This document shows positions 1 through 29,546 of a stretch of DNA of 32,117 bases, in pieces. The DNA comes from an uncultured Clostridia bacterium (GTDB taxonomy: Bacteria > Bacillota > Clostridia > Christensenellales > Borkfalkiaceae). Location: contig CALVWN010000039.1 of assembly GCA_944367415.1 (NCBI GenBank), positions 1-32,117 on the forward strand, written 5' to 3'. A program made the translations under genes and the position numbers. Position 1 is the stretch's first letter. Each line of letters opens with the position of its first letter. Under the pieces are notes generated by a model, which saw nothing but the letters and a program-made list of their open reading frames with translations, was not told the DNA's origin and made no database searches.

Positions 1-164
1 CAGTCGTTTCCAACTGTTATCCCCCTGACATGGGCAGATTGCTCACGTGTTACTCACCCGTCCGCCACTAACGCAAGGAGCAAGCTCCTTACGTCCGTTC
101 GACTTGCATGTGTTAAGCACGCCGCCAGCGTTCATCCTGAGCCAGAATCAAACTCTTAAGTTTA
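1..164 (-). rRNA. rrs: 16S ribosomal RNA, 5' end (partial)
   Basis: Read on the minus strand, the sequence begins just before the universal AGAGTTTGAT(T/C)CTGGCTCAG segment (the primer-27F site, about 138-156) and continues through GATGAACGCTGGCGGCG, CTTAACACATGCAAGTCGAACG and GGCGGACGGGTGAGTAACACGTG. These are the conserved start and first variable region of bacterial 16S rRNA. The gene leaves the window at base 1, so only about the first 164 nt are present. The exact mature 5' end is estimated by analogy with E. coli, where about eight bases precede AGAGTTTGA. The first variable stem is short. The operon is transcribed away from the putative origin at about 23.5 kb, on the leading strand, as usual for rRNA operons. 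Confidence 0.97.
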
Positions 165-12075: not shown

Positions 12076-12978
12076 TTACTCCATGCGGTCAATGATGTCG
12101 AGAAGCTCGCTGATGCGGTCGAGATCGTCGCGCGTGTAGTAGTCGATGTAGATGCGCCCCTTCTTGTCCGTGCCGATGAGCGACACCTTGGTCTTGAGCG
12201 TCGTGCGCAGGCGGTCGACGAGGTGCTTGAGTTCCGCGTTCGCGAGCGCGTTCTTCTTCTCTTTCTCCTTGGCGATGACTTCGGGCGGGTTGAGATACTG
12301 CTTGACCGCGCGCTCCATCTCGCGCACCGACCAGGAATTTTTCACGCACTCCTTCGCAAGGTACGCCTGTGCGTCCTTTTCGACGGGAACGAGCGTGCGC
12401 GCGTGCCCCGAAGAGAGCTTGCCGTCGCGCACGAGATCGATGACCTCCTGCGAAAGGGTCAGAAGGCGCAGCGTGTTGGCGATGGCGGGGCGGGATTTTC
12501 CGAGCCGCTCCGCGAGCTGCTCCTGCGTCAGGCCGAATTCGTCCATCAGCCGCTTCATGCCCGTCGCCGCTTCGATGGGATTGAGATCCTCGCGCTGCAA
12601 ATTCTCGATGAGCGAGATCTCCTGGATCTCCTTGTCGTCGAGTTCCTTGATGATGGCGGGCACCTTGGTGAGCCCGGCGCGCAGGGCGGCGCGGTAACGG
12701 CGCTCGCCCGCAATGATCATGTACTTGCCGCCTTCGCTCTTGTTGACGACGATGGGGCTGATGATGCCGTGCTCCTTGATGGAATTGGCGAGATCGTTCA
12801 ACGCGTTTTCGTCGAACGTCTTACGCGGCTGGTGTGGATTGGGGAATACGTCCTCGATGTCGATCTCCGCAGGCCCCGCGCCGTGTTCCGCCTCTTCGAG
12901 TTCGGTGCGCGCGTTTTCGTAAGCCTCTTCGGTGTCGCTGAACAGCGCCGAAAGTCCTCTGCCGAGTCCTTTAACCAT
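12076..12978 (-). CDS. parB: Chromosome partitioning protein ParB (Spo0J)
   Basis: A 300-residue CTP-dependent DNA clamp that binds parS, spreads on the origin region and loads SMC condensin. Residues 4-13 are the GLGRGLSALF ParA-contact peptide. The N-terminal ParB domain carries GERRYRA (91-97) and ENLQRE (125-130), the nucleotide-binding motifs. The helix-turn-helix lies at about 149-172 (LTQEQLAERLGKSRPAIANT), and the C-terminal dimerisation region ends the protein. Length is normal for the family. The start is 3 nt from the parA stop, so the two are translated together. Two consensus parS sites lie about 3 kb away at 15944-15959 and 15988-16003. It sits in an operon headed by ftsH, which is an uncommon arrangement. 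Confidence 0.97.
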   Translation of the reverse strand: MVKGLGRGLSALFSDTEEAYENARTELEEAEHGAGPAEIDIEDVFPNPHQPRKTFDENALNDLANSIKEHGIISPIVVNKSEGGKYMIIAGERRYRAALRAGLTKVPAIIKELDDKEIQEISLIENLQREDLNPIEAATGMKRLMDEFGLTQEQLAERLGKSRPAIANTLRLLTLSQEVIDLVRDGKLSSGHARTLVPVEKDAQAYLAKECVKNSWSVREMERAVKQYLNPPEVIAKEKEKKNALANAELKHLVDRLRTTLKTKVSLIGTDKKGRIYIDYYTRDDLDRISELLDIIDRME

Positions 12979-12981
12979 GTC

Positions 12982-13758
12982 TTATTCCCCCTTTTGCTGC
13001 GTTTTCTTCAAAAATTCTTCGGTGAGTGCGGCATACGCGCGCGCCCCCATGCACTTGGGATCGTGCAACAGGATGGGTTTGCCGTGGCTGGGCGCCTCGG
13101 AGAGGCGCACGTTGCGCGGAATGACGATCTCATAGAGCTTCTTGGAAAAGTATTTCTTGATCTCGGCGGCGATCTGCTTGGAGATGAGCGAGCGCCCGTC
13201 GTACATCGTGAGCACGACGCCCTCCACCTTCAGCGACTTGTTTAAGTGCTGACGTACGAGGGAAATGGTGTTCATGAGCTGCGAAAGTCCCTCGAGCGCG
13301 TAATATTCGCTCTGGATGGGGATGATCGCGCTGTCCGCCGCGGCGAGCGAATTGATGGTGAGCAGTCCCAGCGATGGCGGGCAGTCGATGAGGATGAAGT
13401 CGAAATCCCCCTTCACCTTCTCGAGCGCCCCGCGCAGCACCTTGTCGCGGTTCTTCTTGTAGACGAGGCTGACTTCGGCGCCCGCCAGATCGATATTGGA
13501 GGGCAGGATGAGCAGCCCTTCCAGCTCGGTCGGCAGGATGTTGTCCTTGACATCCTCGTCGTCGATGATGACGTTATAGACGGATTTTTTGAGCGAACCC
13601 TTGGAGAAGCCCAACCCCGTCGTCGCGTTCCCCTGCGGGTCGAGATCGACCAGCAGCACCTTCTTGCCTGCCTTTGCAAGATACGCCGCCATATTGACGC
13701 AGGTCGTCGTCTTGCCTACTCCGCCCTTCTGATTGGAGAAGGAAATGATCTTTCCCAT
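12982..13758 (-). CDS. parA: Chromosome partitioning ATPase ParA (Soj)
   Basis: A 258-residue deviant-Walker ATPase that works with ParB on origin segregation and, in Bacillus, on DnaA activity. The Walker A motif KGGVGKTT is at residues 11-18 with the signature lysine, followed by the VLLVDLDPQGNAT strand. DFILIDCPPSLG is the Walker B region. Length matches the chromosomal Soj group. The ATG at 13758 was chosen because AAGGAG lies 8 bases before it; a GTG three codons earlier is too close to that site. The gene is separated from ftsH by 5 nt and from parB by 3 nt, so all three are one transcription unit. Confidence 0.97.
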   Translation of the reverse strand: MGKIISFSNQKGGVGKTTTCVNMAAYLAKAGKKVLLVDLDPQGNATTGLGFSKGSLKKSVYNVIIDDEDVKDNILPTELEGLLILPSNIDLAGAEVSLVYKKNRDKVLRGALEKVKGDFDFILIDCPPSLGLLTINSLAAADSAIIPIQSEYYALEGLSQLMNTISLVRQHLNKSLKVEGVVLTMYDGRSLISKQIAAEIKKYFSKKLYEIVIPRNVRLSEAPSHGKPILLHDPKCMGARAYAALTEEFLKKTQQKGE

Positions 13759-13763
13759 ATCTC

Positions 13764-15752
13764 TCACTCCTTATCGGTTTTATCCTGCGTACCCTCCGTC
13801 GGCGCGCTCTCCGCTCTCTGCCCCGCCGCGCCCTTTTCGGACGCCTTGAGCCCGAACGGATCGTCCGGTTCGCCCTTGTCGTGCTTCTCCATGTAGTCGA
13901 GCACTTCGGTGTATGAGCGCCCCTCCATGAGCATATCCACTTCCGCCGTATAGATGGTCTCGCGCTCGACGAGCACGCGCGCCATATTGTCGAGTACGGC
14001 GCGGTGTTCCTTTAAGAGATTGCGCGCGCGCATATACTGTTTTTCAACGATCGCGCGCACCTCGCTGTCGATCGCCGCGGCGGTCTGTTCGCTGTAGCTG
14101 TTGCGCTCCTCGAAATCTCTGCCGAGGAACACCGGGCCGTCGCTGCCGTAGCAGATGGGGCCGATCTTCTCGCTCATACCCCACTCGGTGACCATCTTGC
14201 GCGCCATCTGTGTGACCTTCTGGATGTCGTTGGAAGCGCCCGCAGAGACGTCATGGATGACGAGTTCCTCCGCAACACGGCCGCCCAGCGCCATACAGAT
14301 AAAATCGTTAAGTTTGTTAACCGTCATATCGTTATCATCCGTCTCGGGGCGCGTGAGCGTGTAGCCTGCCGCCATGCCGCGCGGAATGATGGAAACTTCA
14401 TGCACGTTGTCGTTGTGCTCGCAAAGTTTTGCGAGGATGGCGTGTCCTGCTTCGTGATAGGCGGTACATTTCTTGTCCGCTTCGGTCACGACGCGGCTCT
14501 TCTTCTGCGGCCCCATGATGACCTTGTTGATGCCCTCATACAGCTCGAGGTTGCCGATCATGTTCTTCCCCTCTCTCGCGGCGAGGATGGCTGCCTCGTT
14601 GAGAAGGTTGGCAAGGTCGGCTCCCGAGAATCCGCTCGTCATGCGGGCGATCACCTTGAAGTTGACGTCGGGAGCGAGCGGTTTGTTGCGGGCATGAACG
14701 TTCAGGATCGCCTCTCTGCCCTTGACGTCGGGCAGGTTGACATAGATCTGACGGTCAAACCGGCCGGGACGGAGCAACGCGCTGTCGAGAATGTCGGCGC
14801 GGTTGGTCGCCGCCATGACGATGACGCCTTCGTTCGTCTCGAAGCCGTCCATCTGCACGAGGATCTGGTTGAGCGTCTGTTCGCGCTCGTCATGCCCGCC
14901 GCCGAGACCGGCGCCTCTCTGGCGCCCCACCGCATCGATCTCGTCGATGAAGATGATGCAGGGCTGGTTGCGCTTTGCCATATCAAACAGGTCACGCACA
15001 CGCGATGCGCCGACGCCGCCGTACATCTCAACGAAGTCGGAACCGCTGACCGAGAAGAAGGGCACGCCCGCTTCCCCTGCGACCGCCTTCGCAAAGAGCG
15101 TCTTGCCCGTTCCGGGAGGGCCGACCAGAAGGACGCCCTTCGGGATCTTTGCGCCGAGATCGGCAAATTTTTTGGGACTCTTGAGGAATTCAACGACTTC
15201 CTTCAATTCCTCCTTCTCTTCCTCCGCACCCGCGACATCGGAGAAACGCACCTTGATGTTGGTGGAAACGCGAGCCTTCGTTTTTCCGAAGTTCATCACC
15301 TTCCCCCCACCGCCGCTCATCGAGCGGGCGATCAGGATAAACGCTACGATACCGATGACAAGCACCGCAATATAGAGAACATTCCCCCACCCCGAACCCG
15401 CGTTCGGATCTTCAAACTCGATCTGAATTCCACGATCCATCCAATCCTTCAGCTGCGGAGAAGAAGAATCGTAAAGGCTGGGGCCTGTCGTCGTGTACGC
15501 ATACGCCGCGTTCTGATTGGTCGACGTATAGCCATACAGGTTATATCCGTTGATGACAATGCGCACGATCTGCTGATTGTCGGGGATCTCCCCGGCGTCC
15601 TCCTCCCCTCTCGGGTCTTCGATCAATTCGAGGAACTGATCGTAGGTACGCTCTTTCTGCGCATTGATTTGAGAAGTGATCACGAAGTACGCTGCTATTC
15701 CCAGGATCGCGACAAGCACCACGATGATCACTGTTTTGACAGTCTTGCTCAA
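13764..15752 (-). CDS. ftsH: ATP-dependent zinc metalloprotease FtsH
   Basis: A 662-residue membrane-anchored AAA+ protease that degrades misfolded and regulatory proteins. Helices at about 7-26 and 125-143 flank an extracytoplasmic domain. The AAA domain has Walker A GPPGTGKT (211-218), Walker B IIFIDEID (266-273) and RPGRFDR. The protease zinc site is HEAGH (433-437). The start is a TTG at 15752, with AAGGAG eight bases upstream and no better ATG. The substrate-pore loop reads MYGGVG where most FtsH proteins have MFVGVG. The C-terminal tail is rich in Glu, Lys and Ala. It has its own promoter (15816-15844) and leads the parA-parB genes. Confidence 0.97.
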
Positions 15753-15943: not shown

Positions 15944-15959
15944 TGTTTCATGTGAAACA
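15944..15959. promoter_or_regulatory. parS site 1 (ParB binding)
   Basis: TGTTTCATGTGAAACA is the 16 bp parS palindrome with one change at the centre relative to the Bacillus consensus TGTTNCACGTGAAACA. It lies in the ftsH-cvpA intergenic region, 44 bp from a second perfect site. Confidence 0.9.
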
Positions 15960-15987
15960 CTTCCGAGAATTTTTTCATGAAAAACGG

Positions 15988-16003
15988 TGTTTCACGTGAA
16001 ACA
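15988..16003. promoter_or_regulatory. parS site 2 (ParB binding)
   Basis: TGTTTCACGTGAAACA is an exact match to the parS consensus and is part of an 18 bp perfect palindrome with its flanking bases (15987-16004). ParB encoded at 12076-12978 is the expected ligand. Confidence 0.95.
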
Positions 16004-16454: not shown

Positions 16455-16546
16455 TGTGGATAACTCAACACCACATAGAACAGATACAACTTCATCCACA
16501 ATTTCTCCACCGGGTTATCCACACAAATGTGGATAACTGTGGAAAA
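16455..16546. promoter_or_regulatory. DnaA-box cluster A
   Basis: Three perfect TTATCCACA boxes (16455-16463 minus, 16515-16523 plus, 16528-16536 minus) and two with one mismatch (TCATCCACA at 16492-16500, TGTGGAAAA at 16538-16546) fall within 92 bp of AT-rich intergenic DNA. This density is typical of an origin subregion or a DnaA-titrating locus. A long inverted repeat (16569-16583 with 16597-16611, one mismatch in 15) lies just beside it. Confidence 0.85.
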
Positions 16547-18920: not shown

Positions 18921-19832
18921 TTATTCATCCTGTTTGTCGTCCTCGTCCTTACCGAGGTAGGTGCCGAAGAAGCCCGAGAAGCTCCCCTTGCGGTAGCCGC
19001 TCGACGCCCCGCCGTCGCGCTTGAAGCTCGTGCCGGACGACTCCGGCGTGCCCTCTGCGGGAAGCTCGCGCTTCGGGTACGGCTTGCGCTCACCGTACTT
19101 GCTGCCGCCGCTGCGGTTGCCGCGGTAGCCGCCCTGGTCGCGGTTGAACTTGCCGCGGCTGCCGCCGTTGCGGTTGCCGCGATAGCCGCCCTGGTCACCT
19201 TTTCGGTCATACGTCTTGAGGTTTTTGGGAATAATGACCACAAAACGCTGCGGCTCTTTTCCCTCGCTCTTGGTCGTGACATCGGGATTATCGACGAGCG
19301 CGGCATGGATGATGCGGCGCTCATAGGGGTTCATCGGCTCGAGGCGCACGCGTTTTCCGAGGCGCACCGCCTTGGCGGCAAGCTTCTCGGCAACGCGCTT
19401 GAGCGTCTCCTCACGATCCTCGCGGTAATTCTCGCAGTCGACGACGACGCGCTTGTACTCCTTTCTGCCCGTGTTGGCAACGGCGCCCGCAAGCGTCTGA
19501 ATGGAATCGATGATCTCTCCGCGGCGGCCGATGATGCTCTTTGCCGACGCGGCGCTCAGCTCGATGACGATCTTCTCGTCCTCGCTCTTGAGCTGCACGG
19601 CAGCCTCCGTTCCGATGAGGGGAAGCAGCCCCTCGAGAAACTCCACCGCACGCTCGCCGTCCGTCTTTTTGGGTTTGACGGTGAGTTTCACCTGCGCGGG
19701 TTTTGAGCCGATCAGGCGTTTTTTTCCTTCGTCGAGCACTTCGATCTCGACCTCCGATTGCTGTACTCCGAGCGCTTCCAGCCCGGCACTGACGGCCTCT
19801 TCCACCGTCCTTCCCGTGAAAATGTTTTCCAT
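18921..19832 (-). CDS. khpB: RNA-binding protein Jag/KhpB with RG-rich tail
   Basis: A 303-residue RNA-binding protein linked to cell elongation and division in Gram-positive bacteria. Residues 1-52 are the Jag-N domain. The KH domain covers about 85-160 with the GxxG loop GRRG (102-105). The R3H domain covers about 165-205 and contains NPYERRIIH, whose Arg and His define the family. Beyond residue 210 is an extra tail of about 90 residues rich in Arg, Gly, Asn and Ser. In it the unit DQGGYRGNR occurs twice (213-221 and 232-240), like eukaryotic RGG boxes. Most Jag proteins end after R3H. It follows yidC by 29 nt, the standard partner order. Confidence 0.95.
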   Translation of the reverse strand: MENIFTGRTVEEAVSAGLEALGVQQSEVEIEVLDEGKKRLIGSKPAQVKLTVKPKKTDGERAVEFLEGLLPLIGTEAAVQLKSEDEKIVIELSAASAKSIIGRRGEIIDSIQTLAGAVANTGRKEYKRVVVDCENYREDREETLKRVAEKLAAKAVRLGKRVRLEPMNPYERRIIHAALVDNPDVTTKSEGKEPQRFVVIIPKNLKTYDRKGDQGGYRGNRNGGSRGKFNRDQGGYRGNRSGGSKYGERKPYPKRELPAEGTPESSGTSFKRDGGASSGYRKGSFSGFFGTYLGKDEDDKQDE

Positions 19833-19861: not shown

Positions 19862-21355
19862 TCAGCGGCCTTTCTTTTTGTTTTTCTTATTCTCCTCCCG
19901 TTCGCGCGCCTCGCGCTCCAGCATCCACTTGGGTTTGTTGGAATTGACCTCGATCGCCCGCTGTTCCTCCTTCTTCTTGAAGATCTTTCCGAGAATGAAG
20001 TTGGACGCCAGGGTGACGAGCAGCGAGAACAAGCTCGAAATGAGCATATAGATCGTGAACGCGGCACTGTACATGAATGCGAAGATCGCATAGATGAGCG
20101 GCATCATGACGAGCATGATCTTCTGCGTCTTCGCGCCCTGCCCGTCCACCGTCTGATATTGACTGCTCTCCTTCTGGGAGCGCATCATGACGAACTGCGA
20201 GAGCACCATCAGCCCGATGGAGAGGATGATGAGGATGAAGTACCCGTTCGCCTCCTCCTTCTCCGCGGAAAGTCCCGCCGTCAGATCGTTGTAGTTCTGT
20301 TCGCTGAAGATATTCTGCAGCGGCGCCGTCGTTCCGTCCGCAAGCGTGACGTTGACGTTGCCGAAGTTCTGTTGGAAGGTCGCATAGTCCTGCGGAACGG
20401 GGTGGTTGTAGGAGACGTCGGGATACCAGACGTTCTTCACCCATAAGAAGTTCGCGCGGTTGCTTTCATACCACGTCTTTGCCGCCGTCGCGCCCAGCCC
20501 CTTGACGTAGGAGAGGCACGCCGTCTCGAGGTTTTCCGCCTCCGTGACCGTCTTGTACCCTTCGGCGTCGTTTTCCTCCAGCCATGCGGTCAGCCTGTCC
20601 GTATCGATGACGTATTCCTTGGTGATGTTCGTCGCCTCGAGGCTGTAGCCGTAGGAGAGATACTTGTCTGGATCCTCCGGCACGACGCGCAGATAGTAGG
20701 CGACGTTCCCGGTGGACGTCAAGGTATAGATGCACCCGTTTTCCGTGAACGTCTCATCCATTTTGACGCTTTTCTGCGTCTGCGCACCCGCCTCGTCCGT
20801 ATATGTCAGCGTGATCGCTCCGTCCGTGACGACAATGGCGCCGTTTTCATCCTTGACGGCGGTATAGCCGATGCCCTCTGCGCCGTTCGCGAGAATGGCG
20901 GCGTTGTAGTCGCCCGACATCTCCACGAAGAAATTGAGGTTCGCGTAGCGCGAATAGGCGTTGAACGCCTGGAATGCAATGATGACGACGACGAAGGAGA
21001 TGATCATGGGAAGACAGGCGCCGAACATCGAATAGCCGTTCTTCTTATACAGCTCCATCATCTTCTGGTTATACGTCGTCTTGTCGTTGGCGTACTGTTT
21101 TTGCAGTTTGTCGAGGTCGTCGCGCATCTCGCGCATGATGAGCGTCTGCTTTCTCGTCTTGACGCGCTGATAGATGTCGAACGGCAGCGTGATCGCCTTT
21201 AAGATGAGCGTAAAGCAGATGATGCCGACACCGATGATGCCGACACTCTCGATGATGGCGCGGACACACTGACCGAGCCAGTCCAGCCCGATCGAGTATC
21301 CCTGTTGCAGCAGCGAAACAGACACGCTGCTGAGTAACGTCATAACAGATTGCAT
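19862..21355 (-). CDS. yidC: Membrane protein insertase YidC with enlarged external loop
   Basis: A 497-residue YidC/Oxa1-type insertase. Helices are at about 38-58, 114-132, 371-391, 412-430 and 433-457. Between helices 1 and 2 lies the cytoplasmic hairpin with ELYKKNGYSMFGACLPM. The usual external segment FLWVKNVWYPD (303-313) is recognisable, but it is preceded by about 160 extra residues (about 140-301) after helix 2, rich in Thr, Asp and Tyr. Gram-positive YidC proteins normally have about 260-300 residues without this insert, and the Gram-negative insert is elsewhere, between helices 1 and 2. The groove arginine of helix 1 appears to be Lys53 (FTLILKAITLPF). The basic C-terminal tail (KKNKKKGR) is typical. 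It lies in the conserved rnpA-yidD-yidC-jag order. Confidence 0.94.
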   Translation of the reverse strand: MQSVMTLLSSVSVSLLQQGYSIGLDWLGQCVRAIIESVGIIGVGIICFTLILKAITLPFDIYQRVKTRKQTLIMREMRDDLDKLQKQYANDKTTYNQKMMELYKKNGYSMFGACLPMIISFVVVIIAFQAFNAYSRYANLNFFVEMSGDYNAAILANGAEGIGYTAVKDENGAIVVTDGAITLTYTDEAGAQTQKSVKMDETFTENGCIYTLTSTGNVAYYLRVVPEDPDKYLSYGYSLEATNITKEYVIDTDRLTAWLEENDAEGYKTVTEAENLETACLSYVKGLGATAAKTWYESNRANFLWVKNVWYPDVSYNHPVPQDYATFQQNFGNVNVTLADGTTAPLQNIFSEQNYNDLTAGLSAEKEEANGYFILIILSIGLMVLSQFVMMRSQKESSQYQTVDGQGAKTQKIMLVMMPLIYAIFAFMYSAAFTIYMLISSLFSLLVTLASNFILGKIFKKKEEQRAIEVNSNKPKWMLEREAREREENKKNKKKGR

Positions 21356-21368
21356 AGTTTCTCGCCTA

Positions 21369-21614
21369 TCATAGCAGCCAGATCTTTTTGAAGAACGGCT
21401 CGGGCGCGGGGTCGATCCCCCCCTTGGAGAGGGGATTGCACCGCAGGATGCGCCACATCCCGCACAGAATGCCCGGAAGGACGCCCAGATTATTGATACA
21501 TCGCTTGGTGTACTCCGAACAGGTGGGCGTGTACAGGCACGTCCCGTGCGAGAGATACTTCTGGTAGAAACAAATCATGCGGATGCAAAGCCCCTTGAGA
21601 CGGGACTTAAACAT
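21369..21614 (-). CDS. yidD: Membrane protein insertion efficiency factor YidD
   Basis: An 81-residue membrane-associated protein that helps YidC-dependent insertion. The start overlaps the rnpA stop by 8 nt, indicating translational coupling; the longer open frame upstream is the antiparallel frame of rnpA and not coding. Family signatures are IRMICFYQKYLS, the cysteine motif CLYTPTCSEYTKRCI (residues 26-40), and the RILRCNPLSKGGIDPAPEP end. The Shine-Dalgarno sequence is weak, in line with coupling. It is followed by yidC after 13 nt. Confidence 0.93.
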   Translation of the reverse strand: MFKSRLKGLCIRMICFYQKYLSHGTCLYTPTCSEYTKRCINNLGVLPGILCGMWRILRCNPLSKGGIDPAPEPFFKKIWLL

Positions 21615-21999
21615 CTTCTTTTTGAGAAAGATTCTGAGAAAGGACGCATTCTCTCTCGCCAACGCCCGCAGAGCGATCGGCGGTAAGTTTTTCGCGTCGG
21701 AAGATCTTTCCGACATCTCTTGCGAATGCGGCATACGAATATTCCTTTGCCGCCCGCGGAATGAGCAAGAAGGAGCAGGATATGGCAAGACATTCCGCAT
21801 TGGAGCGGAATGCTTCCCGCAAGAGCCGCTTGATGCGGTTGCGTACGACGCTTTTTCCGTATTTCTTGCCCACACACACCGCGAACTTCGTCTCGTCGGA
21901 CGGCATCCAGACGATCGTCAGACTCTCCGCGTGCGCTCTCTTTCCGACCCGCAGGATTTTGGTAAAGTCTTTCTTTCTCTTGATCCGCAGGTATTTCAT
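21607..21999 (-). CDS. rnpA: Ribonuclease P protein component
   Basis: A 130-residue basic protein that assists the RNase P RNA in tRNA 5' processing. It starts MKYLRIKRKKDFTKILRVGKR and has the signature KKYGKSVVRNRIKRLLREAF (residues 45-64) with the RNR motif. The last 20 residues form an acidic extension not typical of the core. It begins 6 nt after rpmH and overlaps yidD by 8 nt, so rpmH, rnpA, yidD, yidC and jag are one operon. Length is close to the family's usual 110-130. Confidence 0.96.
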   Translation of the reverse strand: MKYLRIKRKKDFTKILRVGKRAHAESLTIVWMPSDETKFAVCVGKKYGKSVVRNRIKRLLREAFRSNAECLAISCSFLLIPRAAKEYSYAAFARDVGKIFRREKLTADRSAGVGERECVLSQNLSQKEDV

Positions 22000-22005
22000 G
22001 CAGCG

Positions 22006-22140
22006 TTATGCGGAAATGTGCTTTCTGCCCTTGTTTCTTCTTCTCTTGAGGGTGTTTCTTCCGCCCTGCGTCTTCATGCGCTGTCTGAAGCCGTGCACCT
22101 TGCTCTTCTGACGCTTCTTGGGCTGATACGTTCTCTTCAT
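22006..22140 (-). CDS. rpmH: Ribosomal protein bL34
   Basis: A 44-residue ribosomal protein of the large subunit. The sequence begins [18 protein letters not shown] and continues with [20 protein letters not shown] to RKHISA, the complete bL34 pattern at the family's usual length. AAGGAG stands six bases before the ATG. It is the first gene of the rnpA-yidD-yidC-jag operon and has a near-perfect promoter 63 bp upstream. In most Firmicutes rpmH is divergent from dnaA; here its upstream neighbour is dnaN on the same strand. Confidence 0.98.
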
Positions 22141-22235: not shown

Positions 22236-23333
22236 TTATGCGACGTTTCTCACGGGTAAAATGAGATACAGGCTGTCTTTTGTGTCGCGGTTCTGCAAAA
22301 TAAAGGGGGATACGGCGCCGTTGAAGGACATCACCACGTTCTCCTCGCCCAGCGCGTGCAGCGCGTCGAGCAGATATTTCGCATTCATCGAGATCGACAT
22401 CTCCACGCCCGTCATCTCCGCGCGCACGACCTCCGCCACGTTCCCGAAGTCGGAGACGGAGGAGACCTTGACGCTCTCCGTGCCGATCTCGAGGGTGACG
22501 AGATTGTTCTTGTCCCCGCGGATGAGGATGGCGGCGCGCTCCACGGAGGCGATCAGCTCCTCCTTGTTGAGCTTCACCGTCGTCGTAAAGGAGGAGGGGA
22601 CGACGTTCTCCTTGCGGATGAACTCTCCCTGATAGAGGCGGGAGACCACCGTCGTGCCCTCCGACTGCACCAGAAGCATCCCGCCCTGCGTGTAGAGCGT
22701 GATCTCCTCGTCCTCCTTCTCCAGCATCCTGGCGATCTCCGTCAGCGTGCGCGCCGGGCAGATGATGCTCTTCTCGCCGCTCTTGGACAGGATCTTCGCC
22801 GACGTGATCGCAAGGCGGTACCCGTCGAGCGCGGTCATTTCCAGTTTGTCGCCGAACTCCATGAGGCACCCCTTGAGCACGGGACGCGAATCGTCCTGCG
22901 CGCAGCAGAACGTCGTCTCGGCGATGATCTTTTTGAGATCCGCCTGCTGCATCGTGAACGAATTTTCCCCGACCGTGAAGTCGATTTTGGGAAATTCCTC
23001 CGCCGGCAGGCTCTGCATGAAGGTACCCGCGTCGCGGTATCTGATCTCGACGCCCTTCTCTCCCGTGGAGATGCTGATCTCCTCGTCCGAGAGTTTGCCG
23101 ATAAAGTCGGAGAACAGCTTTCCGGGCACGCACGTCTCGCCCTCTTCGAAGATCTCCGCCTTGACGCCCTTGCGGATGGAGAGTTCGCCGTCGGTGGCGA
23201 GCAGGGTGACCTCCTCGCCGAACGCCGAGAGCTTGATGCACTCCATGACGGGCGCGGTCGTTCTGACGGCGCACGCCTTGCTCACCTTGATGACAGCCTC
23301 CGAGAGGGAAAGCCCGTCGCACACAAATTTCAT
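22236..23333 (-). CDS. dnaN: DNA polymerase III beta subunit (sliding clamp)
   Basis: A 365-residue replication clamp, close to the usual 366-378. It begins MKFVCDGLSLSEAVIKVSKA, has TAPVMECIKLSAF and LLATDGELSIRKG in the first domain, and ends with the motif pair VVMSFNGAVSPFILQN and the YLILPVR C-terminal strand that binds client proteins. The ATG at 23333 was chosen because AAGGAGG precedes it by 6 bases; the open frame upstream runs through the origin repeats and is not coding. It is expressed from a promoter at 23452-23480 through the putative unwinding element. dnaA, its usual neighbour, is absent; rpmH follows after 95 nt. Confidence 0.97.
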   Translation of the reverse strand: MKFVCDGLSLSEAVIKVSKACAVRTTAPVMECIKLSAFGEEVTLLATDGELSIRKGVKAEIFEEGETCVPGKLFSDFIGKLSDEEISISTGEKGVEIRYRDAGTFMQSLPAEEFPKIDFTVGENSFTMQQADLKKIIAETTFCCAQDDSRPVLKGCLMEFGDKLEMTALDGYRLAITSAKILSKSGEKSIICPARTLTEIARMLEKEDEEITLYTQGGMLLVQSEGTTVVSRLYQGEFIRKENVVPSSFTTTVKLNKEELIASVERAAILIRGDKNNLVTLEIGTESVKVSSVSDFGNVAEVVRAEMTGVEMSISMNAKYLLDALHALGEENVVMSFNGAVSPFILQNRDTKDSLYLILPVRNVA

Positions 23334-23373
23334 CGCTTGCCTCCTTATGTAGGGGATATTAAAAGAAAATAGA

Positions 23374-23412
23374 TAATAGTAATAGTAATAGTGCCTGTGG
23401 AAATGTGGACAA
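23374..23412 (-). promoter_or_regulatory. oriC: Putative origin unwinding element: DnaA boxes plus DnaA-trios
   Basis: On the minus strand the order is TTGTCCACA (23404-23412, one mismatch to the DnaA box), a second weaker box TTTCCACAG, a short GC spacer, then CTATTACTATTACTATTA. Read on the complementary strand 3' to 5' this is GAT-AAT repeated three times, the DnaA-trio pattern known from the Bacillus subtilis basal unwinding system. AT-rich DNA (TCTATTTTCTTTTAATAT) follows. Position just upstream of dnaN is also the same as in Bacillus. This is the strongest oriC signal in the window. Confidence 0.8.
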
Positions 23413-23451
23413 GCCGTCGGCGCGGCGCGCCCGACCCGTCCGAATACCCAT

Positions 23452-23480
23452 ATTATAGCGAAAATAGGCGGAAATTTCAA
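23452..23480 (-). promoter_or_regulatory. Promoter of dnaN
   Basis: On the minus strand TTGAAA (23475-23480), 17 bp, TATAAT (23452-23457); start near 23445. Its leader would cover the DnaA-trio element, so initiation at the origin and dnaN transcription may interfere. Confidence 0.8.
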
Positions 23481-23513
23481 GCGATTTGGGCTATTTTTGC
23501 AAAAAGAGCGCGC

Positions 23514-23667
23514 TGTGGAAAACCCGCGAAAACGCTGTGGACAGGCTGTTCACAATTTGTGCAGAAAATCCCGCCTGTGGAGAAAAATTTTCCCCGATTT
23601 TCGCCGCGCAAAAAAAATCGGCGCGTCGCGGCAAAGTTATCCACACACTTATCAACAGTGTGGAAAA
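23514..23667. promoter_or_regulatory. oriC: DnaA-box cluster B (oriC)
   Basis: One perfect box TTATCCACA (23637-23645) and one-mismatch boxes TGTGGAAAA (23514-23522), TGTGGAGAA (23576-23584), TTATCAACA (23649-23657) and TGTGGAAAA (23659-23667), between the divergent dnaN and rsmG genes. With the trio element at 23374-23412 this forms a complete bacterial origin pattern. Gene direction changes here from minus to plus. Confidence 0.85.
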
Positions 23668-23693
23668 ACTTCCCCGTTCTTCTCGACAAACGG

Positions 23694-23722
23694 TTGAAAA
23701 CCCCGCAGCGGTATGGTATAAT
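23694..23722 (+). promoter_or_regulatory. Promoter of rsmG
   Basis: TTGAAA (23694-23699), 17 bp, TATAAT (23717-23722) with TGG before the -10 (extended -10). The expected start at about 23729 is the ATG itself. Confidence 0.8.
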
Positions 23723-23728
23723 GGTCGC

Positions 23729-24421
23729 ATGAGAGAAAAAACCCCCGATTTTCAGGTTTTGCGGCAGAAAATCGCCCGAAACGAGCAAAAATTTCAGACA
23801 TTTTACGAGCTGCTCCTTGCGGGCAACGCGGCGTTCAACCTAACTGCGATCACGGAACAAGAGGAAGTTTTCCACAAACACTTCCTCGATTCGCTCGCCG
23901 GCGAGGCATATTTGCCCGAAAACGCCCGCGTCGCGGAGGTCGGCTCGGGCGCGGGCTTCCCGTCCATCCCCCTCGCCATCGTGCGCGGCGACCTTTCGTT
24001 CACGCTCATCGAAAGCACCGGCAAGAAGTGCGAGTTCCTGCGCACCGTCGTCTCCCGCCTCGGGCTGAACGCGACCGTGCTGCAGATGCGCGCGGAGGAC
24101 GCCGGCCGCGACCCGCGCTATCGCGAACAGTTCGACGCCTGCATCGCGCGCGCCGTCGCGCCCCTCGTGCCGCTGTGCGAGTATTGCTTCCCGCTCATCC
24201 GCACGGGCGGCTGCTTCGTCGCGTGGAAGGGCAGCGAGGACGAGACCCCCTCGGCGCGCCATGCCGTGCAGCTGCTCGGCGGCAGCCGTCTTTGCTCGCT
24301 CGCCTACGAGCTTCCCGCCGGCTACGGCGCCCGCCGTCTCGTGCTCGCCGAAAAGACCTCCCCGACGCCCGCAAAGTACCCCCGCGGCAACGGCAGGGAA
24401 CGAAAAAACCCCATCGTATGA
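23729..24421 (+). CDS. rsmG: 16S rRNA (guanine-N7) methyltransferase RsmG (GidB)
   Basis: A 230-residue SAM-dependent methyltransferase acting on G527 (E. coli numbering) of 16S rRNA. Family markers are NLTAITEQEEVFHKHFLDSL near the start, the SAM-binding VAEVGSGAGFPSIPLAIVR (about residues 70-88), LIESTGKKCEFLRTV, IARAVAPLVPLCEY and GGCFVAWKG. Length is close to the usual 235-240. The first family-like codon is the ATG at 23729. It has no ribosome-binding site, and the -10 box ends only 6 bases before it, so the message is probably leaderless. It is the first plus-strand gene right of the origin, its usual neighbourhood in Firmicutes. The next gene starts 19 nt later. Confidence 0.95.
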   Translation: MREKTPDFQVLRQKIARNEQKFQTFYELLLAGNAAFNLTAITEQEEVFHKHFLDSLAGEAYLPENARVAEVGSGAGFPSIPLAIVRGDLSFTLIESTGKKCEFLRTVVSRLGLNATVLQMRAEDAGRDPRYREQFDACIARAVAPLVPLCEYCFPLIRTGGCFVAWKGSEDETPSARHAVQLLGGSRLCSLAYELPAGYGARRLVLAEKTSPTPAKYPRGNGRERKNPIV

Positions 24422-24890: not shown

Positions 24891-24995
24891 TGTGGATAAC
24901 TTTCCCGACAGACACAAAAAAAGGACGCGCGCGGTTCCACTTATTATAATATAATAGAAAAGTTATCCACATTCCCGCGCCCGCACTGTGGATAA
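24891..24995. promoter_or_regulatory. oriC: DnaA-box cluster C with AT-rich stretch
   Basis: Three perfect TTATCCACA boxes: 24891-24899 (minus), 24963-24971 (plus) and 24987-24995 (minus), around an AT-only stretch of about 17 bp (24941-24957, TTATTATAATATAATAG). Nothing codes here. It looks like a second origin subregion, one gene pair away from cluster B. Confidence 0.85.
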
Positions 24996-25446: not shown

Positions 25447-25536
25447 ATGAAAGAGAATTCCCGTTGCGAAACGGTGGCTTTTTCGGAACAGATCGTACTT
25501 CAAACAAATTTTAGAACAATTAAAAGGAGAAAGTGA
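25447..25536 (+). CDS. Candidate leader peptide upstream of the giant lipoprotein
   Basis: A 29-codon open frame starting at the ATG at 25447, with GGGAGG upstream (long spacing of about 12). It ends with TGA at 25534-25536, two bases before the ATG of the large gene and overlapping its alternative GTG start. The peptide starts MKENSRCETVAF and ends RTIKRRK. The arrangement suggests translational coupling, but it could be chance. Confidence 0.3.
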   Translation: MKENSRCETVAFSEQIVLQTNFRTIKRRK

Positions 25537-25538
25537 GT

Positions 25539-28500
25539 ATGGTTCAGAGAATCAGGCATTTGGTTGCGAAAGTGCTGATGCTTCTTCTGGTCGTCTGTAT
25601 GGTGATCGGCGCCGCTTTTCTGTTCGCGGGCTGTTCTGAAGACACCAAGAGCGTGCAGTCTTTTGCAATCGAAAACGGGGAACTCATCGTCACGTATACG
25701 GACGGGACGACGGATAACCTCGGCAGCGTAGTCGGCTCCAACGGCACGCAGGGCGACCAAGGCCCTCAGGGCCCTCAGGGCCCCCAGGGCGAGCAAGGCG
25801 ACAAGGGCGACAAGGGTGACCAAGGCGATAAGGGCGACCCTGGCCGTGGTATCGTGAAAGTTGAGATCGTTGACGGCAACCTGATGGTTACCTATACCGA
25901 CAGCGAAACGCCCGTTAACGTCGGCAAAGTGGACGAGGCAGACGCGATCGGCGTCGCCGACATCACGACCGAGCTTGTCGATGGCAAGATCAACATCGTC
26001 ATTACATACACGGACGCATCGAAGGAACCCGTCAAAATTCCTGTCGAGAATCTTCTTCCTACCTGCGAGCATGAGTTCTATCAGATCACGCTTACGGAAG
26101 CGACCTGCCAGGAAGGCGGCGTTATCCTGAGCGTCTGCCAGAAGAACTGCGGCACGGCGAACATTGACTTCACCGAAGTCGATCCCGAAAACCACACCTA
26201 CGTCGATACGCTGACGATGCCCACCTGCGAGGCAGACGGCTTCATCACGCGTACCTGCACGGGCAAAGATTCCACCGTTACGGTCACGCTTAAAGAGATC
26301 GTTGCAGACGTTGCGGAGGACGGCGAGGGCATCTTCGCAGAGCTTCTTGCGGAAAACGAGATTACCGATCCCGCAACGCAGCTCAAGGCGCTTGGTCACG
26401 ATTACAAGTATACGTTTGTCGAGCCCGGCTGCGAGACGAACGGCTATATCACCTACGAATGCACACGCGACGAGGCGCATGCCGGCACCATCACGATGGA
26501 GCAGGTCAAGGCGGACTTCGATCTTGAGGAAGCAGACAGACAGTACACCACGATCCTTTCCGGTCTCGGCATCGATTCCGTCGAGGATATGATGGCAACC
26601 GGTCACTCCGGTAAAGAGAAAGCCGAGTGGGTCACCGTTGTCGATACCGGCGCAAACATCTGCGAGGACGGCGGACAGTACGTTCTTCTTTGCAGCAACT
26701 GCTACGACTATATGTACGACTCCGTGGACATTCCCGCGCTGGGTCACATCGTCACGGAAGAATGGAAGGTTCTCAAGGCTCCTACGCTCACGGAAACCGG
26801 TGTTCTCAGCGGTGCCTGCGCAGAGTGCGGTCTCTCCGCCGCAACCGTTGTGCTTCCCGCGCTGAACGACGAGGATTACGAAGTCACAACGAAGGAAGAG
26901 GCTTCCTGCGATAAGGAAGGTCTTGATGAGTACAAGATCACGTTCAACCAGGCGAGAGTAGATGCCGAAGAGGATGTCGAGCTTGTCTCCTTCACGTTCG
27001 AACAGGCAACGACCGCGCAGCATAAGCTCGGCACGACTTTGATGGATCTCAACAAGGTCTACAGCAAGCAGGAGCTTGAGTCTCTCAATGCAGCGAATAA
27101 GGGCGACAAGGAATATAATGTCGCCGGCGTTTCCGGTAACTATCCCGCAACCTGCCTCGATACAAGCGGCAGAGGCTTCTTCTACTGCTCCGAGTGCGAC
27201 AACCTGTTCATCGTCAGTGTCTCCGGCCCTCATACCTATACGGAGGAAGATATCATCGACGAGAAGGCTCCTTCCTGCTACGAAGAGGGTTACAAGACGT
27301 ATAAGTGCACCGTCTGCGGCAAGGATGAGACGATCACGATTCCCAAGACCGAGCACACCTACGGCGAGCCTGTTGTCACGCCCAATAGCGATGGAAACGG
27401 TGCTACCATTGTCTTCACCTGCTCCGTCTGCCCCGAGGGCACGGAAGGTCATACCTACACGATCAACGCGCTTACTTGGGAGAAGAGCGTTGATCCCGAG
27501 GAGACGTGGGATGCGACCTGCTCGAAGGAAGGCCAGACGACCTGGAACTACACCTACGAGAATAAAGATGGCGGCGAACCGATCGCGGATACTTACGTCG
27601 TGACGTATCCGAAGCTTCCTCACCACAGCAAGAACGGCGCGACCTACGTGGACGGTCAGGACAATAATGAGATCTACCAGGCATCGCAGATCGACGAAGT
27701 TTCCGGCAACTATCCTGCTGACTGCACCATCATCGGTCAAGGTATCATCCGTTGCGAGGATTGTAAGGAAGTCTTCATTGTTCAAGTCCAGGGCGATCAC
27801 AAGTACGGCGCAGGCGTCCTTACCAAGCCTACCTGCACGGAAGATGGCACCATCACCTACACCTGCACGGTCTGCGACGAAGACACCAATGGTCATACCA
27901 TGGTTGTCACGCAGGCAATCTATGCAGCGGCTACGGGCGCTGAGAAGGAAGCTTATGACGCGATCCTCAGCGCGGCAGGTCTTGACAGCCTCGAGGCACT
28001 CGGTCACACCTACAGCAGCGATCCTGTCATCGACATCGATAACGAGACGCTCAGCGGTACGATCACCTTCACCTGCGACGTCTGCGGGTTTGAGTATGTT
28101 GTGGAAGGCAAGAACTTCCAGAAGGATACTGGAAGGAGCAAGGCATCGACCTGTACCGTTCAGGGATTCGATCTCTACACTTACGAGTACGACCTGCCCA
28201 ACGACGGCGGTACGACGAGCGGCGAAATCGAAGTGCCTCTGCCGCTTGCAGCACACGTCAACAATCTGGGCACCGAATATGATCCGGACGAAGATTGGTA
28301 TTATGCGAGCAAGGTCGACAAGGAAGCACAGAACTTCCCTTCGAGCTGCCTCGAAATGGGCCAGGGCATCATCACCTGCAAGGGTTGCGGTACCGTCTTC
28401 ATTGTCGACGTCAAGGGCGACCACGACTTCGGCGAACAGGTCGATTGGATCACGGTCAACGCAACCTGCACGACGGCGGCTTATCAGTATAAGCACTGCC

Positions 28501-29546
28501 TCGTCTGCGATCAGGACATCCGGAACAAAGACTATGTGGGCGCTACTGCAACCGGTCACAGCTACAACTATGAAGCGACCGTTGAGCCTACGGCTACCAC
28601 GGCGGGCACGTTGGTTGCGACCTGCTCCAAGTGCGACGACGAAGTCGAGTACACGCTTCCCGCACTTTCCGAAGCGAACGGCTACAAGGTAGTTACGGTT
28701 CCTGCGACCTGCCAGGCACAGGGTTCCATCACCTACAGCTACGAGGTCAAGGGTACGGACGGCTCTGTTCTCTACACCTACACCAAGGTTGAGTCCACTC
28801 CTACGGTCGATCACAAGCTTGGCGACAAGGTTTACAGCTGGACGCACGAGGGCTATGACTACACCGGTAAGCTCTGCTCGACCTGCAATCAGATGATCGT
28901 CATCACCAAGACCGAGTCCGTCGGGTCGAAGCCCGTCAACGACAAGATCCTTGGTTCCGAGTTTGCAACGTGGGTGGATCCTTGGCAGGATGTTGAAGAG
29001 TACACGATCGCAGAAGGTCAGACCATCGTCCTTTCCGCAACCTATGCAAACGCAGGGGCTGATGCATTTGACGGTATCATGGCGTTCGTCTACACCGGTG
29101 CATTCACCAGCGGGTTCGACTATGTCTACCGCGCTCCCGGCGACATCTGTAATTCCACTTGGACGGGTGCGACCACGAACGTGACGATCAACAAGGGTAT
29201 CGATCTTTCTGATCTTAATGCTCAGGTTGTTAAGGATTTTGCTGCGATGAAGAGCGACGCGAAGTTTGACCTCACGATCAGCTTTGCAGACGACACGCTC
29301 ACCTTCACGATGAACTACTACGCTGCAGACGGCACGACCGTTGCTGAAACGCTCAGCGCGACCATCACCGGTTTGACGGCAGACAGCTACAAGATCGGCT
29401 TCGTGCTTGATCGTGCGACGGTTGTCGGCGATGTCACGATCACCGAGAATGCGCTTCCCGCAGTCGACGAAGGTGAAGACGAGGGCGAAGGCGAAGTGAC
29501 GGTTCCCACCGATCCCACCGAGCCCGGCGACGTCGTGATGGCGTAA
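25539..29546 (+). CDS. Giant Cys-rich lipoprotein with collagen-like stalk
   Basis: A 1335-residue surface protein of unknown function. Residues 1-32 are a lipoprotein signal with lipobox FAGC (Cys32). Residues 66-104 form 12-13 Gly-X-Y triplets (such as GPQGPQGPQGEQGDKGDKG), a collagen-like stalk. The body, about 180-1170, contains at least a dozen CxxC pairs in modules of the type TCxxxGxxxYxCxxC...H(T/D)Y. Three longer units share GNYPA(T/D)C or NFPSSC, then GxG(I/F)(I/F)xCxxC...(F)IV and H. A C-terminal domain (about 1185-1305) looks beta-rich and may bind carbohydrate. The end is acidic. Cysteine pairs may bind zinc or form disulfides. AAGGAG precedes the ATG by ten bases; a GTG two codons earlier is possible. 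A strong promoter and terminator make it a single-gene unit. The bases are somewhat less GC-rich at third positions than in flanking genes. Confidence 0.9.
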   Translation: MVQRIRHLVAKVLMLLLVVCMVIGAAFLFAGCSEDTKSVQSFAIENGELIVTYTDGTTDNLGSVVGSNGTQGDQGPQGPQGPQGEQGDKGDKGDQGDKGDPGRGIVKVEIVDGNLMVTYTDSETPVNVGKVDEADAIGVADITTELVDGKINIVITYTDASKEPVKIPVENLLPTCEHEFYQITLTEATCQEGGVILSVCQKNCGTANIDFTEVDPENHTYVDTLTMPTCEADGFITRTCTGKDSTVTVTLKEIVADVAEDGEGIFAELLAENEITDPATQLKALGHDYKYTFVEPGCETNGYITYECTRDEAHAGTITMEQVKADFDLEEADRQYTTILSGLGIDSVEDMMATGHSGKEKAEWVTVVDTGANICEDGGQYVLLCSNCYDYMYDSVDIPALGHIVTEEWKVLKAPTLTETGVLSGACAECGLSAATVVLPALNDEDYEVTTKEEASCDKEGLDEYKITFNQARVDAEEDVELVSFTFEQATTAQHKLGTTLMDLNKVYSKQELESLNAANKGDKEYNVAGVSGNYPATCLDTSGRGFFYCSECDNLFIVSVSGPHTYTEEDIIDEKAPSCYEEGYKTYKCTVCGKDETITIPKTEHTYGEPVVTPNSDGNGATIVFTCSVCPEGTEGHTYTINALTWEKSVDPEETWDATCSKEGQTTWNYTYENKDGGEPIADTYVVTYPKLPHHSKNGATYVDGQDNNEIYQASQIDEVSGNYPADCTIIGQGIIRCEDCKEVFIVQVQGDHKYGAGVLTKPTCTEDGTITYTCTVCDEDTNGHTMVVTQAIYAAATGAEKEAYDAILSAAGLDSLEALGHTYSSDPVIDIDNETLSGTITFTCDVCGFEYVVEGKNFQKDTGRSKASTCTVQGFDLYTYEYDLPNDGGTTSGEIEVPLPLAAHVNNLGTEYDPDEDWYYASKVDKEAQNFPSSCLEMGQGIITCKGCGTVFIVDVKGDHDFGEQVDWITVNATCTTAAYQYKHCLVCDQDIRNKDYVGATATGHSYNYEATVEPTATTAGTLVATCSKCDDEVEYTLPALSEANGYKVVTVPATCQAQGSITYSYEVKGTDGSVLYTYTKVESTPTVDHKLGDKVYSWTHEGYDYTGKLCSTCNQMIVITKTESVGSKPVNDKILGSEFATWVDPWQDVEEYTIAEGQTIVLSATYANAGADAFDGIMAFVYTGAFTSGFDYVYRAPGDICNSTWTGATTNVTINKGIDLSDLNAQVVKDFAAMKSDAKFDLTISFADDTLTFTMNYYAADGTTVAETLSATITGLTADSYKIGFVLDRATVVGDVTITENALPAVDEGEDEGEGEVTVPTDPTEPGDVVMA

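What the first reader, a model, noticed from the sequence alone, without database searches (positions are those of the whole stretch)
23374..23667. Bacillus-type oriC with DnaA-trios next to dnaN
Seen: on the minus strand a DnaA box (TTGTCCACA), a second weak box and a GC spacer are followed by CTATTACTATTACTATTA, which reads GAT-AAT three times on the opposite strand 3' to 5'. Further boxes follow to 23667. Known: DnaA-trios next to two boxes and a GC spacer form the unwinding element of Bacillus subtilis. The gene strand switch at the same place supports origin function. The alternation GAT-AAT is unusually regular.
Basis: partly seen in the sequence, partly recalled or inferred. Interest (0 to 1): 0.75.

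Follow-up and report, generated by a model that had tools for sequence, protein, structure and literature searches.

The report
Replication origin separated from dnaA gene
This stretch is almost certainly the place where an uncultured gut bacterium (Candidatus Gallimonas) starts copying its chromosome: it carries the standard bacterial opening sequence next to the clamp gene dnaN, while the gene for the starter protein DnaA lies elsewhere in the genome.

Summary
At 23374-23412 (minus strand) lie a DnaA box, an overlapping weaker box, a 4-bp spacer and six DnaA-trios, with more boxes up to 23667. By one pattern it is the only such element in the 1.73-Mb draft genome (74% complete). By my rule a box-plus-trio element lies upstream of dnaN in 49 of 50 loci.

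The window itself shows no GC-skew switch. On 10 relatives' contigs the skew minimum lies about 18 bp before dnaN in two, 223 bp before it in one, 1.1-3.5 kb past its start in five, and elsewhere in two. So this is very probably oriC.

Five of 11 other same-order genomes also have the two genes apart.

The GAT-AAT alternation is not special. Less expected: the distance from the dnaN -10 hexamer to box 1 falls in separate classes (16-18, 27-30, 37-41, 52 bp; 73 of 103 genomes matched), roughly one helical turn apart, suggesting geometric coupling of clamp-gene promoter and origin opening.

The parts
23374..23391 (-). six DnaA-trios (CTA-TTA x3 on the minus strand; 3'-GAT-AAT-5' x3 on the plus strand); the minus strand here also reads as overlapping TnnT motifs (possible DnaD recognition element)
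   Evidence: related loci; TnnT definition from passages of PMC10201434
23392..23395 (-). spacer GGCA between boxes and trios
23396..23404 (-). DnaA box 2, ATTTCCACA, 2 mismatches
23404..23412 (-). DnaA box 1, TTGTCCACA, 1 mismatch
23413..23451 (-). 39-bp interval between the -10 hexamer and box 1; its length falls in classes in relatives
23452..23457 (-). -10 hexamer TATAAT of a predicted dnaN promoter
23475..23480 (-). -35 hexamer TTGAAA of the predicted dnaN promoter, 17-bp spacer
23514..23667 (.). upstream DnaA boxes (<=2 mismatches): 23514-23522(-), 23536-23544(-), 23558-23566(-), 23576-23584(-), 23637-23645(+, exact), 23649-23657(+), 23659-23667(-)
22236..23333 (-). dnaN, sliding clamp
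   Evidence: TIGR00663 over cut-off
22006..22140 (-). rpmH, 44 aa (name recalled from the sequence, no family search)
   Evidence: translation
21607..21999 (-). rnpA
   Evidence: TIGR00188 over cut-off
19862..21355 (-). yidC
   Evidence: TIGR03592 over cut-off
18921..19832 (-). jag/eloR
   Evidence: NF041568 over cut-off
15944..16003 (.). two parS-like sites (15944-15959 with 1 mismatch, 15988-16003 exact)
16455..16546 (.). second DnaA-box cluster (three exact boxes) near parS; no trio run seen by eye; such a cluster is in 6 of 36 loci examined
12982..13767 (-). parA/soj (name partly from position)
   Evidence: ParA-type matches, none of the 25 shown (of 31) over its cut-off
12076..12978 (-). 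parB/spo0J
   Evidence: TIGR00180 over cut-off
23729..24421 (+). rsmG (gidB), divergent from dnaN
   Evidence: TIGR00138 over cut-off

Best explanation
The dnaN-rsmG intergenic region (23334-23728) is the chromosome origin oriC. DnaA made from a gene elsewhere binds boxes 1 and 2, is guided onto the adjacent trios on the plus strand and melts the AT-rich stretch about 23340-23391; a DnaD/DnaB-like protein and the helicase then enter. The upstream boxes to 23667 raise the local DnaA concentration. Shown here: the sequence, its conservation, its place at or near the skew minimum in most relatives tested, and the separation from dnaA. Inferred from B. subtilis work: binding, melting and loading. 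Also inferred: boxes and trios lie inside the predicted dnaN leader (box 1 about 32 bp past the start in this window, if transcription begins about 7 nt after the -10) at distances in steps of about a helical turn, so DnaA occupancy or opening is probably coupled to the dnaN promoter by geometry.
For: Anatomy. Single site in the held genome; boxes and parS concentrated here. Conservation: 49 of 50 loci (window + 49) pass my rule, and the first trio starts 12 nt after the box scored in 46 of the 49. GC skew: minimum about 18 bp before the dnaN start in G058:C1 and G040:C2, 223 bp before it in G026:C4; in G058 and G026 the sign switches at dnaN/the element and not at dnaA. Public loci: rsmG side negative in 39 of 42, dnaN side positive in 34 of 45. 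dnaA not adjacent in 26 of 26 same-family genomes where both genes were found. DnaB_2-domain protein in 7 of 7 same-genus genomes searched, over the cut-off in 6. Spacing classes.
Against: The window shows no skew switch; among the six contigs three do (G005, G006, G015) and three do not (window, G007, G016). Of the 10 contigs, G101 (60 kb off) and G077 (21 kb off) have the minimum elsewhere and five have it 1.1-3.5 kb past the dnaN start; these are contigs, so no chromosome-wide minimum was tested. The public loci overlap in part with the G genomes (e.g. L063 is G004:C17, L087 is G006:C3), so the sets are not independent. The 49-of-50 rule allowed up to 3 box mismatches and had no shuffle control of its own. 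L110 fails it. In G144 a TATAAT lies between the element and dnaN. Spacing classes are shared by descent: at least six class changes on the tree, and the period is not sharply resolved (R 0.84-0.91 for 10-12 bp). No experiment exists.
Confidence: 0.95

Rival explanations
1. The box cluster is only a DnaA-controlled dnaN promoter; the origin is at dnaA.
For: DnaA boxes lie inside the predicted dnaN leader; DnaA is a known transcription regulator (recalled).
Against: No skew switch at dnaA in G058 or G026, switch at dnaN/the element in both; no box with <=1 mismatch within 300 bp upstream of dnaA in 16 of 18 same-genus loci; the box-trio pattern has no second site in the own genome.
Confidence: 0.02
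2. The origin is bipartite: the second box cluster at 16455-16546 near parS works together with the dnaN-side element by looping.
For: Five boxes with <=1 mismatch, three exact, within 92 bp near the only parS sites found; the cvpA-ftsH interval holds 1.84 such boxes per kb over 36 loci against 0.18 in nearby genes; bipartite origins are known in B. subtilis and H. pylori (recalled).
Against: Only 6 of 36 loci have >=3 such boxes in 150 bp there; no trio run seen by eye.
Confidence: 0.1
3. The discrete -10-to-box distances come from gain or loss of an RNA hairpin in the dnaN leader, or from shared descent, not from helical phasing.
For: Leaders of the 37-41 class fold better than 60 shuffles each (mean z -2.41, 14 of 18 below -1.5); 27-30 class mean -0.94, 16 of 50; 16-18 class mean +0.47, 0 of 3. 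An inverted half-box GGACAAG (<=1 mismatch) is in 18 of 48 spacers against 7.5 expected from letter shuffles. At least six changes only.
Against: A hairpin alone would not leave 19-26, 31-36 and 42-51 bp empty; sister loci differ by about two turns (L069 17, L072 38) and one turn (L093 41, L097 52).
Confidence: 0.4
4. Chance AT-rich leader sequence that looks like trios.
For: Trio motifs are short and AT-rich; L110's run is broken.
Against: 0 of 60 shuffles with >=4 trios (1 of 60 with >=3); conserved register in related loci.
Confidence: 0.01

Closest known systems
B. subtilis incC / basal unwinding system (BUS)
   Same: Tandem boxes with the better one upstream, short spacer, consecutive trios (abstract, search-program section and first part of the results of PMC8287927; passages of PMC6669920); position before dnaN (recalled)
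   Different: dnaA is not upstream; a predicted dnaN promoter lies directly before the boxes; the two boxes share one base
Cyanobacterial oriC next to dnaN (Cyanothece 51142)
   Same: Origin beside dnaN; 55 of 68 cyanobacteria are said to have dnaN on one side; no DnaA box near dnaA in Synechocystis 6803 and Prochlorococcus (passages of PMC4674748)
   Different: Another phylum, box type TTTTCCACA; here rpmH-rnpA-yidC-jag follow dnaN and parA/parB are near
Same-order genomes with dnaA next to dnaN (G025; by eye G027 and G028)
   Same: Box-plus-trio-like sequence between dnaA and dnaN (G025 by pattern; the others read by eye)
   Different: dnaA adjacent; G019, G020 and G022, also adjacent, gave no match to the pattern and were not looked at further

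Membership tests
BUS-type bacterial oriC | DnaA box with <=2 mismatches to TTATCCACA (rule of PMC8287927) | tested here: met
   1 mismatch at 23404-23412
BUS-type bacterial oriC | second box with <=4 mismatches next to it (often, not always, present) | tested here: met
   ATTTCCACA, 2 mismatches, sharing one base with box 1
BUS-type bacterial oriC | >=3 consecutive NAN trios within 16 nt of the box | tested here: met
   six trios, 12 nt after box 1
BUS-type bacterial oriC | lies in an origin by GC skew | tested here: met
   contig-level minimum in relatives, (8 of 10 within 3.5 kb, 3 within 223 bp, 2 elsewhere); not seen in the window itself; no whole chromosome tested
BUS-type bacterial oriC | DnaA-dependent strand separation needing boxes and trios | not testable with these tools
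   needs purified DnaA
Bacillus-type oriC (dnaA-dnaN locus) | dnaA adjacent to the origin | tested here: not met
Bacillus-type oriC (dnaA-dnaN locus) | DnaD recognition element (TnnT repeats opposite the trios) and a DnaD/DnaB homologue | tested here: inconclusive
   TnnT repeats follow from the trio sequence itself; a DnaB_2-domain protein is in the own genome at C71, but whether it is DnaD and binds here was not tested

The most novel reading that the evidence does not exclude
In this family the origin has been uncoupled from dnaA and coupled to the clamp gene: the unwinding element sits in the dnaN leader at helically quantised distances from the dnaN promoter, so that RNA polymerase and the DnaA complex touch or exclude each other on one face of the DNA and clamp expression and origin opening form a single switch. 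(A further step, that this replaces self-regulation of dnaA, is weaker: boxes upstream of dnaA are also missing in 5 of the 11 other same-order dnaA loci examined.)
Probability: 0.25. Interest if true: 0.75.

Novelty: new variant of a known kind. Interest (0 to 1): 0.42.

Why it matters
It adds an uncultured gut lineage to the evidence that the box-trio element, not the dnaA gene, marks where a bacterial chromosome opens: with dnaA elsewhere, the element is still beside dnaN. The many related genomes act as a natural mutational scan of an origin (nearly fixed box-to-trio distance, promoter distance in classes), which makes a coupling between clamp-gene transcription and origin opening testable. 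It also gives an oriC position for copy-number-based growth estimates in these bacteria.

Tried and rejected
Window-only GC skew: no switch here. Origin at dnaA: rejected by skew in two relatives and by few boxes. Second box cluster near parS as a generally conserved partner: 6 of 36. Helical phase of upstream boxes against box 1: weak (same strand n=76, R=0.43 at period 11; opposite strand n=45, R=0.34) and confounded by relatedness, not used. Special meaning of the GAT-AAT alternation: rejected. Rfam at gathering cut-offs found only a partial 16S rRNA at the window edge; no tRNA. A same-order search for the promoter-box pattern (distances 6-36 bp only) matched 5 of 200 genomes, two in this genus; the other three (G148, G183, G192) were not examined. 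Literature: listings showed no title or abstract start describing this origin or a promoter-phased unwinding element; I opened five papers, none in full (sections of PMC8287927; passages of PMC6669920, PMC10201434, PMC4674748 and PMC8035907, whose held text gave no passage on Gallimonas). The hits were not opened, only open PubMed Central papers are held, and DoriC was not checked.

Full report
WHAT IS THERE. The window is contig 39 of an unnamed draft genome (1.73 Mb, 86 contigs, 74% complete). Related public records are titled Candidatus Gallimonas (several) or uncultured Clostridia or similar; placing Gallimonas in Borkfalkiaceae/Christensenellales is recalled. On the minus strand the order is dnaN, rpmH, rnpA, yidC, jag, a cvpA-like gene (name recalled; weak NF033740 match), ftsH, parA, parB; rsmG starts divergently at 23729. 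Between dnaN (start 23333) and rsmG lie 395 bp with the reported element. Box 1 and box 2 share one base, the spacer is GGCA and six trios follow; a TTGAAA-17-TATAAT pair points at dnaN, its -10 ending 39 bp before box 1.

MORE THAN CHANCE. Box counts and the box-trio combination exceed shuffles. In the held draft genome the box-trio pattern occurs only here. Of 18 same-genus genomes with a dnaN match (own included), 16 have the pattern just upstream of dnaN and 2 (G011, G016) have none; in the 19 same-genus genomes there are two sites elsewhere (G009, G013), and the reversed control pattern matched once (G004). Over all 31 genomes the control matched 3 times. Eight of the genome's 13 exact TTATCCACA and its only parS-like sites (<=1 mismatch) are in this window. 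Box density over the 50 loci is 2.54 per locus in the 500 bp before dnaN, 0.45 in the next 500, and at most 0.29 per 500 bp elsewhere within about 10 kb.

CONSERVATION. For the 49 public dnaN loci plus the window, 49 of 50 pass a rule of box (<=3 mismatches), 0-16 nt and at least three trios with two of CTA/TTA type, sought in the 900 bp before dnaN; this rule had no shuffle control. The failure, L110, reads TTGTCCACA-TTTCCACGCCGT-CTA-TTT-CTA-TCA-CTA. L107 and L108 are more distant (52-53% identity). rsmG is the divergent neighbour in 46 of the 49. In L080 and L085 the dnaN-jag segment is flipped relative to its flanks, and in L106 rsmG and its neighbour are turned round. The element is upstream of dnaN in all three, so it is not tied to rsmG.

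IT IS THE ORIGIN. GC skew was tested on 10 long contigs, nine of this genus and one (G026) of the order. The cumulative minimum lies about 18 bp before the dnaN start in G058:C1 (295,252 bp) and G040:C2 (158,748 bp) and 223 bp before it in G026:C4 (100,000 of 103,989 bp used). In G006, G097, G103, G076 and G111 it lies 1.1-3.5 kb past the dnaN start. In G101 it lies 60 kb and in G077 21 kb away. Among the six contigs (G006 again included) the sign switches in G005, G006 and G015 but not in the window, G007 or G016. Over the public loci the rsmG side is negative in 39 of 42 and the dnaN side positive in 34 of 45 (loci with over 3 kb on that side). These sets overlap in part.

dnaA IS ELSEWHERE. 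dnaA sits between recF (divergent) and mnmG in 18 of 18 same-genus loci and in 9 of 9 further genomes of three genera of the family. In 26 of 26 same-family genomes where both genes were found, they are on different contigs (25) or, in G058, 162 kb apart; different contigs of drafts give no distance, but the neighbouring genes show that the two are not adjacent. G013 lacked a dnaN and G008 a dnaA match. In G058 the skew is -0.060 on both sides of dnaA (20 kb each) but -0.072 and +0.066 around dnaN (20 and 12.6 kb); G026, with dnaA about 38 kb away, behaves alike. Sixteen of 18 same-genus dnaA loci have no box with <=1 mismatch within 300 bp upstream; but so do 5 of 11 other same-order loci, so this is not a mark of the family. 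Of the 11 other same-order genomes with both genes, 6 have dnaA directly before dnaN (G019, G020, G022, G025, G027, G028) and 5 have them apart (G023, G024 and G026 on one contig, G021 and G030 on two), so separation is not unique either. Between adjacent dnaA and dnaN a box-trio match was found in G025 and read by eye in G027 and G028. The simplest history, an inference, is that dnaA was moved and the element stayed with dnaN.

PROMOTER GEOMETRY. Two pattern searches over the 103 genomes of the genus, together allowing 6-63 bp between an exact TATAAT and box 1 and requiring box 2, matched 73; 30 had no match. Distances: 16-18 in 4, 27-30 in 50, 37-41 in 18, 52 in 1; none at 19-26, 31-36 or 42-51. 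On a quick dnaN protein tree the classes change at least six times, so the events are few. The period is not sharply resolved (R 0.84-0.91 for 10-12 bp). Seven loci outside the genus, with box 1 chosen by eye, have TATTAT at 27-30 bp (two also TATAGT at 24, one TATAAT at 25). Steps of about 11 bp suggest that promoter and boxes keep one rotational setting. The longer class also carries leader hairpins, so an RNA explanation remains open. In G144 a TATAAT lies between element and dnaN.

MECHANISM. By analogy with B. subtilis (abstract, search-program section and first part of the results of PMC8287927; passages of PMC6669920 and PMC10201434): DnaA on the boxes is guided onto the trios, stretches that strand and opens the duplex; DnaD binds TnnT repeats on the opposite strand. 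A DnaB_2-domain protein exists in 7 of 7 same-genus genomes searched, over the cut-off in 6. None of this was tested for these proteins.

STATUS. The element meets the published sequence rule for a BUS. An origin beside dnaN and away from dnaA has a parallel in cyanobacteria (passages of PMC4674748). The classes of promoter distance are the part that I did not see described in the listings.

Noticed in passing
window 23694-23729: rsmG may be leaderless: TTGAAA-17-TATAAT ends 6 nt before the ATG; a -10-like hexamer 6-7 nt before the start is seen in 37 of 50 loci, none was found in 8.
   Followed up: partly
window 16455-16546: Second DnaA-box cluster with three exact boxes near parS; also in the near relatives L062 and L063, but in only 6 of 36 loci overall.
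   Followed up: yes
window 24891-24995: Three exact TTATCCACA boxes between a DUF1273-like gene (name recalled; weak PRK13660 match) and a large surface-protein-like gene.
   Followed up: no
L131 399-491 (G000:C54): Another three exact boxes near a contig end, beside what looks by eye like a tRNA gene (not scanned); a regulatory or titration cluster, or a contig near the origin.
   Followed up: partly
L080, L085 around dnaN: The segment from the origin element through jag is inverted relative to rsmG and the par block.
   Followed up: no
window 23413-23451 and relatives: An inverted half-box GGACAAG (<=1 mismatch) facing box 1 is in 18 of 48 spacers against 7.5 expected from letter shuffles.
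   Followed up: partly
window 1-163: Partial 16S rRNA at the contig end (minus strand), so an rRNA gene lies about 23 kb from the origin.
   Followed up: no
window 25533-29546: 1,337-aa open frame with a collagen-like G-x-y stretch and repeated cysteine-containing segments, perhaps a surface protein (by eye).
   Followed up: no
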